Assembly (NCBI GenBank): GCA_028286885.1
Contig: JAQBQS010000002.1
Coordinates: forward strand, 1-34,545
Reading direction: 5' to 3'
DNA length: 34,545 nucleotides
From: Patescibacteria group bacterium
Lineage (GTDB): Bacteria; Patescibacteriota; Minisyncoccia; Phycocordibacterales; UBA1006
The translations under genes and the position numbers were made by a program. The notes below the pieces were generated by a model. It made no database searches and was not told the DNA's origin. It worked only from the letters and a program-made list of their open reading frames with translations. Positions within the stretch are counted from its first letter, which is position 1, and each line of letters begins with the position of its first letter. Of the stretch, positions 25,971-29,851 are shown piece after piece.

Positions 25971-25990
25971 CAATTTGGTATAATAAAAAC

Positions 25991-26779
25991 ATGAAGGCAC
26001 CGCGAACTATTCTCAACAGCGAATTTTTCAGCCGCAAAACGCATCTTGTCGCCAAGGATCTGCTTGGAAAATTTCTGGTACGGAAAACAGGCAAAGGAGA
26101 AATTATCTCGATGATCACCGAAGTCGAAATCTACGACGGCTTTCTCGACAAGGCAAGCCATGCGCACAAGGGAATTACTCCGCGAACAAAAATAATGTAT
26201 GGAGAACCGGGGAATTGGTATGTGTATTTTACGTACGGCATGCATTGGATGCTGAACGTCGTCACGCGCGAACGCGGCTATCCGGCGGCAATTCTGATTC
26301 GCGGAACCGAGAATGTAAAAGGTCCGGGCAGGCTCACGAAATATTTTCACATCAACGGCGCATTAAATGGTTTACCTGCCGATAAAAAATCCGGCCTTTG
26401 GATCGAAGATCGTGGCATCAGGATCAAGTCAAAAGATATCGAGAAAACGCCGCGCATCGGAATTGCATATGCACAGGATTGGATTGAGAAGCCCCTGCGT
26501 TTTTCGTTGTTAAAAAGCGCTGAGACGAGTATACTTGGAAATAATATGAAATCATCGAAGACGAAAAAACCAAGGCACCGCGACGCGCCCGGCAGAGTCG
26601 AGCGCGCAAAACAAGGCAAGGTGTGGGAAGAATACAAAGCCAAGGTCATGGGCAAGGGGCCTTTTTCACCTGACAAATTGGAACGCGCTATCACGAACTT
26701 CAAACAAGGCGGCCCCAAGATCGAGAATACCCGCGCGTTCAAGCCAAGCGGCAAGAAGCCGATCAGCCGTCCGAAATAA
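25991..26779 (+). CDS. mpg: 3-methyladenine DNA glycosylase (Mpg) with basic C-terminal extension
   Basis: 262 aa; the Mpg/AAG domain takes about residues 1-180 (LVAKDLLGKFLVRK, ITEVEIYDGFLDKASHAHKG, YVYFTYGMHWMLNVV, RGTENVKGPGRLTKYF, TPRIGIAYAQDWIEKPLRF). It removes alkylated purines by base flipping. Bacterial Mpg usually ends soon after the RF block; here a Lys/Arg-rich 77-residue segment beginning MKSSKTKKPRHRD follows in frame. The start at 25991 is backed by TATAAT (25979-25984, extended by TGG) 6 nt upstream; the track start at 25931 lies within the previous gene. Confidence 0.92.
   Translation: MKAPRTILNSEFFSRKTHLVAKDLLGKFLVRKTGKGEIISMITEVEIYDGFLDKASHAHKGITPRTKIMYGEPGNWYVYFTYGMHWMLNVVTRERGYPAAILIRGTENVKGPGRLTKYFHINGALNGLPADKKSGLWIEDRGIRIKSKDIEKTPRIGIAYAQDWIEKPLRFSLLKSAETSILGNNMKSSKTKKPRHRDAPGRVERAKQGKVWEEYKAKVMGKGPFSPDKLERAITNFKQGGPKIENTRAFKPSGKKPISRPK
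26507..26535 (+). promoter_or_regulatory. Internal promoter inside mpg (TTGTTA-N17-TATACT)
   Basis: TTGTTA (26507-26512), 17 nt, TATACT (26530-26535), then 10 nt to ATG 26546, which is in the mpg frame. Both boxes and the leaderless spacing match the other promoters of this window. Confidence 0.55.
26546..26779 (+). CDS. Possible separately expressed 77-aa basic protein (C-terminus of mpg frame)
   Basis: In the same frame as mpg and sharing its stop. It begins MKSSKTKKPRHRDAPGRVER and continues with KVWEEYKAKVMGKGPFSPDK and a basic tail. It sits directly behind an internal leaderless promoter and at the edge of the Mpg domain, so it looks like a once separate small gene fused by loss of the mpg stop. 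No family recognised. Confidence 0.45.
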   Translation: MKSSKTKKPRHRDAPGRVERAKQGKVWEEYKAKVMGKGPFSPDKLERAITNFKQGGPKIENTRAFKPSGKKPISRPK

Positions 26780-26787
26780 TTTCAAAT

Positions 26788-26816
26788 AAAAAACCGTCCT
26801 GTTACCAGGGCGGTTT
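26788..26816. terminator. Bidirectional terminator with a stop codon in its loop
   Basis: AAACCG-T-CCT and AGG-G-CGGTTT with loop GTTACC. The minus-strand stop TAA (26802-26804) is in the loop. Confidence 0.75.
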
Positions 26817-27311
26817 AAATTTTTCTCTGATGTCTTTTTGTTTTGCGAATACCTTTTCGATGAGCGGCGTCCTCTTGGGAACGACCGATTTCACGATCGG
26901 TTCGTCAAAAATTATGCGGAGAGATTCCTCTATTTCGGGAAGATCAAGCTTGAGCATCCTGATGTCGATCTCGCGTATGAGACCGTCATACAGAAAATGA
27001 TCCGAACCTTTTTGAATTCCCTCGTGATGCGGGTCATGAACGATGAGCATCGGAGTATCATGAACTAACTTTTCAGCCATCACACCGAGCATGTGCATCA
27101 CCAATGTCCGTCCCATCGAATGATCTACGATCATAATTCCTTTAGCCTGTTCTTCAGGCTTGAAATCAATGAGAAAGCGATCAGGATTATTCTTATCTTG
27201 GTTCACAATGTGCTGTGTAAGACGGAGCTGCCGAGTATTCAAAGAGGGAAGTAAAAAATCAAAGTCGGGATCGAGATGTTGTGATTCTAATTGGTTTTCA
27301 TCTTCATTCAT
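26802..27311 (-). CDS. Hypothetical protein (169 aa)
   Basis: Soluble, acidic N-terminus (MNEDENQLESQHLDPDFDFL), then KGIMIVDHSMGRTLVMHMLG and HDTPMLIVHDPHHEG, which look like alpha/beta strands with several His and Asp. No family recognised. The track start at 27341 is a GTG inside the promoter (TTGACT 27360-27355, N17, TACTTT 27337-27332 on the minus strand); ATG 27311 leaves a leader of about 13 nt and is preferred. The C-terminal FKPPW and stop are encoded by the terminator hairpin. Confidence 0.68.
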   Translation of the reverse strand: MNEDENQLESQHLDPDFDFLLPSLNTRQLRLTQHIVNQDKNNPDRFLIDFKPEEQAKGIMIVDHSMGRTLVMHMLGVMAEKLVHDTPMLIVHDPHHEGIQKGSDHFLYDGLIREIDIRMLKLDLPEIEESLRIIFDEPIVKSVVPKRTPLIEKVFAKQKDIREKFKPPW

Positions 27312-27389
27312 AGTAAAATGTGCTTTTTTATAAAGTATCACATAATATATATTTAGTCAAGAAGGCCTCTGGCATGATATGCTCATCAT

Positions 27390-27933: not shown

Positions 27934-28725
27934 ATGAACGAATTAAACCCCTGGATAGAATTAAGTATAGAGTACGCAAATCAGCGTAGCTATTTGGATG
28001 ACTTGTTTCAAGTTTATCCTACTATTCCAGACGGTATACGAGAAATGAATGAATCTCATTGGGAGGAGATAGAAACCGCATTCCAGGAGAAAAATAATAT
28101 TGCCTTAATTAAAGGACTTATTAAATTGAATTTATTTCCTATCAAAGATTCTTACGTTGCCTTTTTAAAAAAGGATAAAAAAGCAATAGAACGTAACCCT
28201 GCAACAGTTGCGAGAATTTCTGGCAGATTATATGATATGGGGATTAAAATGATACGCGAACGCAGCTCTGAACCAAAAGAAACAAATCGACAAATTGGAC
28301 CGCTTTTTAAAAGATGGATCAATAAAAAAGCATTGGGTGTCGATTCTTTAAAGATGGCAGACTTTCTTAAAACTACGGAAAATGCAATTTTAGATGCAAG
28401 TGATACAGAGATGATGAATTTTGCACGAGAGCACCTTAATTATAATCGCAATAAAGGATTAGACTTCGTTGCCAGGTTTAATGGAAAGTATGTTATCGGA
28501 GAAGCAAAATTCCTAACTGATTTTGGAGGTCATCAGAACGCTCAGTTTGATGACGCAATGAAATTAATTGAAGACAAAGATGTAAAAGCTATAAAAATTG
28601 CAATCCTCGATGGGATCATTTATGTAAAAGGCGGAAATAAGATGTATAAAAATCTTATAGGTAAATACAAGAATGAAAATATTATGAGTGCTTTGGTCTT
28701 AAGAGAATTTTTGTATCAGATCTAA
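27934..28725 (+). CDS. Type II restriction endonuclease (PD-(D/E)xK)
   Basis: 263 aa. GLDFVARFNGKYVIGEAKFL gives the Asp and E-x-K of the PD-(D/E)xK nuclease, followed by GGHQNAQFDDA. EPKETNRQIGPLFKRWINKK is a conserved-looking block often seen in type II enzymes. An RER triplet (MIRERSSE) recalls the R-(D/E)R motif of CCGG-type enzymes such as BsaWI, but the site cannot be told from sequence. TATAAT is 5 nt before the ATG. The methyltransferase follows after 7 nt. The DNA is clearly AT-rich and uses ATA, AGA and TTA codons unlike its neighbours. Confidence 0.82.
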   Translation: MNELNPWIELSIEYANQRSYLDDLFQVYPTIPDGIREMNESHWEEIETAFQEKNNIALIKGLIKLNLFPIKDSYVAFLKKDKKAIERNPATVARISGRLYDMGIKMIRERSSEPKETNRQIGPLFKRWINKKALGVDSLKMADFLKTTENAILDASDTEMMNFAREHLNYNRNKGLDFVARFNGKYVIGEAKFLTDFGGHQNAQFDDAMKLIEDKDVKAIKIAILDGIIYVKGGNKMYKNLIGKYKNENIMSALVLREFLYQI

Positions 28726-28732
28726 AATAGAT

Positions 28733-29851
28733 ATGTTAATAGTCTACGATAAAAAAAAATCAGAAAAAGATATTTTAGAAAAAACACAATCTGCAAAGCT
28801 TGGTGTTTTTAGTAATGAGAATCCAAAAAATAAACTTATTTTTGGTGACAATCTATCAGTCCTCAAAACTCTTCTTAAGAATTATAAAGGTAAAATTGAT
28901 TTAATTTATATTGATCCTCCTTTTGCCACTAATACTCACTTTAAAATTAATAAAGAGCGAACTAGCACAATTAGTAGCAGTAATGATGATGATATTGCAT
29001 ATAGTGATACTATCGTAGGGGATGATTTTCTAGAATTTTTACGAGAAAGACTTATTTTTTTAAGAGAACTTCTATCTGAAAACGGCTCAATCTATCTTCA
29101 TATAGATTATAAAATAGGCCATTATGTGAAAATAATAATGGATGAGATTTTTGGACAATCAATGTTCCATAATGATATTTCTCGAATCAAATGCAACCCA
29201 AAAAATTTCCATCGAAAGGCATACGGAAACGTAAAAGATATGATTTTGTTTTATTCTAAATCAAATAATCATATATGGAATAATCCCACATTTTCCTTTT
29301 CTGAAAAAGATAAGGACAGATTGTTTAAGAAAACTGATGCAGCTGGAAGACGATATACGACGATTCCTCTACATGCACCAGGGGAAACTACGAATGGCGA
29401 GACTGGAAAAGAATGGAATGGTGTCAAGCCTCCTAAGGGCAGACATTGGCGAACAGATCCTAAAGTCTTAGAGGAATGGGATAAACAAGGCTTAATAGAA
29501 TGGTCTAATAACAATGTTCCTCGAAAGAAAATTTTTTTAGATGAAAAAAATGGTAAAAAATCTCAGGATATTTGGGAATTTAAAGATCCCCAATATCCCC
29601 AATATCCAACAGAAAAAAATCTAGAATTACTTAAATTCATCATCCGGTCTTCCTCCAACGAAGGAAGTTTAGTATTAGATTGCTTTGCCGGCTCAGGAAC
29701 TACATTGGTTGCGGCGCAGTCTCTCAACAGAAACTGGATCGGTATTGATAAATCAGAATTCTCAATCAATATCATAAAAAAAAGACTCGATGATCTTAAG
29801 AATGACAATTCAGCTTCGAACTTTGATTATGAGTTACTTGGAGAAAGTTAA
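28733..29851 (+). CDS. DNA methyltransferase (beta-class N6-A/N4-C)
   Basis: 372 aa. Motif IV (DLIYIDPPFATNTHF) precedes motif I (LDCFAGSGTTLVAAQSLNRN), the circular order of beta-class amino-methyltransferases. FGDNLSVLKTLLKNYKGKID and ENGSIYLHIDYKIGHYVKII are further family blocks; the target recognition region is about 150-290. It should protect the site cut by the upstream nuclease. Strong AT bias is shared with that gene, so the pair was probably gained together. Confidence 0.93.
   Translation: MLIVYDKKKSEKDILEKTQSAKLGVFSNENPKNKLIFGDNLSVLKTLLKNYKGKIDLIYIDPPFATNTHFKINKERTSTISSSNDDDIAYSDTIVGDDFLEFLRERLIFLRELLSENGSIYLHIDYKIGHYVKIIMDEIFGQSMFHNDISRIKCNPKNFHRKAYGNVKDMILFYSKSNNHIWNNPTFSFSEKDKDRLFKKTDAAGRRYTTIPLHAPGETTNGETGKEWNGVKPPKGRHWRTDPKVLEEWDKQGLIEWSNNNVPRKKIFLDEKNGKKSQDIWEFKDPQYPQYPTEKNLELLKFIIRSSSNEGSLVLDCFAGSGTTLVAAQSLNRNWIGIDKSEFSINIIKKRLDDLKNDNSASNFDYELLGES

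What the first reader, a model, noticed from the sequence alone, without database searches (positions are those of the whole stretch)
26480..26779. Mpg fused in frame to a small basic protein that keeps its own promoter
The Mpg domain ends near residue 180. Across the junction lie TTGTTA, 17 nt, TATACT, 10 nt and an in-frame ATG, the same leaderless layout as true promoters here. It looks like a former separate gene whose upstream neighbour lost its stop; the cell could make both a long glycosylase with a basic DNA-gripping tail and the 77-aa tail alone.
Basis: partly seen in the sequence, partly recalled or inferred. Interest (0 to 1): 0.7.

Follow-up and report, generated by a model that had tools for sequence, protein, structure and literature searches.

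The report
Repair enzyme fused to small gene
In one lake-type Patescibacteria genome a DNA repair gene runs into the small basic-protein gene behind it, which stands alone in three sister genomes; a slipped letter run is the likeliest cause, and whether it is real or an assembly error is open.

Summary
One open frame (25991-26779, 262 aa) joins a complete Mpg (AAG-type 3-methyladenine DNA glycosylase, PF02245) to a 77-aa basic segment, with TTGTTA-17-TATACT-10-ATG across the junction. In two it has its own leaderless promoter; in one it sits in the same neighbourhood without Mpg. In 80 related Mpgs the protein ends up to 37 aa (median 5) after the last conserved Arg-Phe; here 91 aa follow. The tail family was found only in this genus.

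New point: the join probably came from a frame change, not a mutated stop codon. After Arg-Phe the in-frame residues (SLL) score below all 80 homologues, while another frame, past a TTTTT run (26500-26504), reads (F)VVKKR-stop, a canonical Mpg ending, with TGA at 26521-26523, 22 nt before the tail's ATG. The change looks recent. No second genome or read set could tell a real mutation from a consensus error, though 70 compared genes show no other frameshift. The "DNA-gripping" role is untested; the internal promoter is plausible but weaker than typical here.

The parts
25979..25990 (+). promoter -10 (TATAAT, with TGG before it) and 6-nt spacer of the Mpg gene, leaderless type
   Evidence: read directly; 14.0 bits with the genome's own leaderless -10 model
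25991..26779 (+). fused open reading frame, 262 aa: Mpg + linker + basic tail
25991..26518 (+). Mpg core (residues 1-176), conserved through R170-F171; pocket residues E46, Y48, H57, Y82, N89, R104 kept
   Evidence: PF02245 8e-48; solved human AAG relatives; invariant or near-invariant columns in 40 Mpgs; model pLDDT above 90 over nearly all of the core
26500..26504 (+). TTTTT run where the reading frame appears to have changed
   Evidence: the frame before it fits Mpg to R170-F171; after it another frame fits better
26503..26523 (+). out-of-frame reading TTC GTT GTT AAA AAG CGC TGA = FVVKKR-stop: likely the old end of Mpg
26507..26535 (+). candidate internal promoter TTGTTA-17-TATACT
26519..26545 (+). 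linker read from former gene end and promoter DNA (residues AETSILGNN)
   Evidence: absent from Mpgs and from stand-alone tails
26546..26779 (+). 77-aa basic tail, a genus-restricted small gene; ATG is the orthologous start codon
   Evidence: 74, 50 and 49% identity to stand-alone genes in G002, G003, G004; dN 0.24, dS 1.99 against G002
26791..26816 (+). terminator-like hairpin after the tail

Best explanation
Two adjacent separate genes, a leaderless Mpg gene and a genus-specific 77-aa basic-protein gene with its own promoter 22 nt behind, were put in one frame by a small length change in a TTTTT run just after Mpg's last conserved Arg-Phe. The old Mpg end and stop survive out of frame, so the change is recent. 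If it is real in the cells, the Mpg promoter yields a 262-aa glycosylase with a basic two-helix tail, and the internal promoter can still yield the 77-aa protein alone, which is probably why the lineage tolerates the fusion. Shown: separate origin of the two parts, exact start match, uniqueness of the extension, surviving out-of-frame ending. Inferred: frame change as the cause, recency, internal transcription, active enzyme. Not shown: presence in living cells; any function of the tail.
For: Stand-alone tail gene in 3 of 3 other genomes of the genus with the start at the same Met. G003 and G004 carry TATACT/TATAGT 6 nt before that ATG. G002 has the same surroundings, HI0933 81-86%, VF530 96% and GIY-YIG 79% identical, with the tail after a DUF2177 gene and no Mpg found. 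80 Mpgs end 37 or fewer residues after RF, median 5, against 91 here. In-frame SLL scores -2.9 bits, below all homologues (lowest -1.0); the other frame's VVK scores 5.5 bits (73rd percentile), chance 0.0009 per out-of-frame position, 0.00035 with a stop in range. No frameshift in 70 genes (19,567 aligned residues) of this genome against G002, which speaks against a generally error-prone consensus.
Against: A single genome carries the fusion. The in-frame end RFSLLKS is not impossible: one homologue (L038) ends RFALLKK. An untouched out-of-frame ending is also what a consensus error would leave. The internal promoter is weaker than typical ones here.
Confidence: 0.55

Rival explanations
1. Consensus or assembly error, or a minority variant picked by the assembler, in the T run: in the cell Mpg and the tail are separate genes.
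For: The complete out-of-frame Mpg ending and stop survive unchanged; fusion seen in one genome only; a run-length difference is the classic error type.
Against: 0 frameshifts in 70 genes of this genome compared with G002; the run is only 5 bases; the best-fitting old ending (RFVVKKR) differs by two bases rather than one (71-call scores: VVK 5.5 against FVV -0.6 bits), less usual for a sequencing error.
Confidence: 0.32
2. Stop-codon substitution or small deletion in the same frame, perhaps old and kept by selection as a DNA-binding tail.
For: A homologue ends RFALLKK (L038), close to the in-frame RFSLLKS; the tail is basic and under purifying constraint.
Against: Does not explain the out-of-frame VVKKR-stop; constraint on the tail is equally expected of a stand-alone protein; no relative shares the fusion.
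Confidence: 0.1
3. Dual output by slippage: ribosome or RNA polymerase slipping on the T run makes some short Mpg from this same sequence, beside the fusion.
For: A -1 shift on the Phe codon within TTTTT would read FVVKKR-stop (sequence).
Against: Five T is short for polymerase slippage, the site is not a canonical tandem-slip heptamer, and no stimulatory element was tested.
Confidence: 0.03

Closest known systems
Mpg / AAG family DNA-3-methyladenine glycosylase (PF02245, TIGR00567; human AAG 1bnk, 1ewn)
   Same: whole core and pocket residues; TIGR00567 over its cut-off (139.9 against 116.35 bits); PF02245 far over cut-off
   Different: short bacterial core plus a C-terminal 86-aa extension found in none of 80 related Mpgs
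Eukaryotic DNA glycosylases with disordered basic tails (human AAG and UNG2 N-termini; from general knowledge, not tested here)
   Same: a basic, partly disordered appendage on a glycosylase
   Different: C-terminal, of separate-gene origin, recent, no DNA-binding evidence
Natural fusion of neighbouring bacterial genes through loss of the frame's stop
   Same: adjacent same-strand genes joined, downstream gene free-standing in relatives
   Different: old stop still present out of frame, downstream promoter and start apparently kept

Membership tests
Mpg/AAG glycosylase (PF02245) | profile match above curated cut-off over the domain | tested here: met
   162.6 bits against 27; TIGR00567 139.9 against 116.35
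Mpg/AAG glycosylase (PF02245) | catalytic and pocket residues (E, Y, H, Y, N, R of human AAG) | tested here: met
   E46, Y48, Y82, N89, R104 invariant and H57 nearly invariant in 40 Mpgs; alignment to 1bnk; residue roles from general knowledge
Mpg/AAG glycosylase (PF02245) | excision of alkylated purines | not testable with these tools
   needs an enzyme assay
gene fusion | both parts exist as separate genes in relatives | tested here: met
   tail alone in G002-G004; Mpg alone in 80 relatives
gene fusion | joined open frame confirmed in reads or a second isolate | not testable with these tools
leaderless internal promoter | -10 box at the genome's usual spacing before the ATG | tested here: inconclusive
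   top 1% of internal ATGs, but no TGn and 10-nt spacing against a mode of 6
leaderless internal promoter | transcription start mapped at the ATG | not testable with these tools
   needs TSS mapping

The most novel reading that the evidence does not exclude
One locus gives three products: full glycosylase-tail fusion, short Mpg by slippage on the T run, and the 77-aa tail from its own leaderless promoter; an early-stage new repair protein caught just after birth, its old stop and old promoter still readable.
Probability: 0.05. Interest if true: 0.7.

Novelty: new variant of a known kind. Interest (0 to 1): 0.33.

Why it matters
If real, it is a clear snapshot of a domain fusion in progress: both parent genes, the neighbourhood without Mpg, the old stop and the retained promoter can all be named. 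Leaderless downstream genes with promoters inside their neighbour would make such fusions cheap, since the free protein is still made. If it is an error, it is a caution: domain-architecture searches in metagenome-assembled genomes should check the alternative frame at a junction before a fusion is claimed.

Tried and rejected
Family searches of the tail in Pfam, NCBIfam, PHROGs and PDB found nothing usable. Tail profile in 297 genomes of the order, 380 of the phylum, GTDB r220 and IMG/VR: nothing outside the genus except a 25-residue marginal hit (E 0.007, G541), taken as chance. Mpg tree: no supported nearest relative, so no donor is claimed. Aligning the fusion with Mpgs and tails together put the tails at the wrong end, so the full-length fold used Mpg rows only. 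The apparent G004 match with stops over residues 123-262 is only the stand-alone tail plus upstream noise. In-hit stops were judged by eye to lie upstream of true starts or on antisense frames. No fold search was run with the tail model (pLDDT 70, pTM 0.39) because its matches would mean little.

Full report
What is there. The frame 25991-26779 encodes 262 residues. Residues 1-176 are a complete Mpg: PF02245 E=8e-48, TIGR00567 above its cut-off, human AAG the nearest solved structures, pocket residues kept. Residues 186-262 are the basic 77-aa segment (pI 10.8).

The tail was a separate gene. In all three other genomes of the genus it stands alone: G002 74%, G003 50%, G004 49% identical, each starting at the Met that corresponds to window ATG 26546. 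These are two lake metagenome genomes and one named Candidatus Nomurabacteria. G003 and G004 have TGCTATACT and TGGTATAGT 6 nt before the ATG. In G002 the tail follows a DUF2177 gene closely, and the surroundings are those of the window: HI0933-like gene on one side, VF530 and GIY-YIG genes on the other. No Mpg was found in G002, G003 or G004 (all are 88-91% complete drafts). The profile finds nothing credible in 297 genomes of the order, 380 of the phylum, GTDB r220 or IMG/VR. Against G002 the tail has dN 0.24 and dS 1.99, so it is a constrained protein.

The extension is unique. Of 297 genomes in the order 86 carry Mpg. In 80 of these proteins the stop comes a median of 5 and at most 37 residues after the last conserved Arg-Phe. 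Here 91 residues follow.

How the join arose. After R170-F171 the window reads S-L-L-K-S in frame. S is never seen at that place in 80 homologues, and SLL scores below all of them. One other frame, reached within the TTTTT run at 26500-26504, reads (F)V-V-K-K-R-stop, with TGA at 26521-26523. VVK scores 5.5 bits, better than 73% of the homologues. Out-of-frame DNA of this genome reaches that score in 0.0009 of positions, and in 0.00035 with a stop in range; with a few frames and offsets allowed, the chance is of the order of 0.001-0.004. So the older state was most likely Mpg ending at that TGA, 22 nt before the ATG of the next gene, whose -35 overlaps the end of Mpg. Caveat: L038 ends RFALLKK, so the in-frame ending is not absurd.

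Real or error. The ending being intact means the change is recent, or is not in the cells at all. Comparison of 219 kb of this genome with 469 kb of G002 gave 70 matched ORFs and 19,567 aligned residues without a frameshift in this genome; some of these ORFs are antisense readings, so the true number of genes is lower. That argues against an error-prone consensus but cannot clear one site that was picked for being odd. No reads or second genome of the species could be reached.

The promoter. In 219 kb, a -10 (TATAAT with at most one mismatch) stands 4-12 nt before the start of about a quarter of genes, most often at 6 nt and usually as TGnTATAAT. The junction site lies in the top 1% of 792 internal ATGs but below the usual strength. 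A promoter that once worked is the simplest reading, helped by the homologous start and by the promoters of the G003 and G004 orthologues. Whether it still fires is unknown.

The protein. The tail alone is modelled as two helices (17-35, 42-53) between loose basic ends at modest confidence. In the full-length model the same helices (202-219, 227-238) follow a confident Mpg core and a linker under 50 pLDDT, as expected for two independent parts. No function can be assigned; the invariant RxFKPxGKKPxxRPK end fits nucleic-acid binding in general.

Verdict. Observation confirmed; separate-gene origin confirmed; mechanism revised to a recent frame change; existence in the cell and function of the fusion open.

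Noticed in passing
26546-26779; L003:1498-1734; L005:57-278; L006:1678-1896: A genus-restricted small basic protein family, present in all four genomes of the genus, without any match in Pfam, NCBIfam or PHROGs; invariant C-terminal motif RxFKPxGKKPxxRPK.
   Followed up: yes
27934-29851: Tsp45I-type restriction enzyme (PF06300, E 6e-121) next to an N6/N4 DNA methylase: a type II restriction-modification pair.
   Followed up: no
26802-27341 (-): Minus-strand ORF convergent with the fusion, weak DUF900 alpha/beta-hydrolase hint (below cut-off), not seen in the syntenic G002 contig, where PspC and a small secreted protein lie instead.
   Followed up: partly
G000:C13:6827-7201 (L099): A DUF2177 gene (41% identical to the one upstream of the tail in G002) lies elsewhere in this genome; in G002 and G004 DUF2177 neighbours the tail gene.
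   Followed up: partly
window and L100-L109: Leaderless extended -10 promoters (TGnTATAAT, 6-8 nt before ATG) are common in this genome.
   Followed up: yes
G016:C1:50717-51256 (L004, L011): The only other Mpg in the family is a distant long-type protein (about 37-45% identical), so the window's short-type Mpg is sporadic in the family; origin by transfer or loss not resolved.
   Followed up: partly
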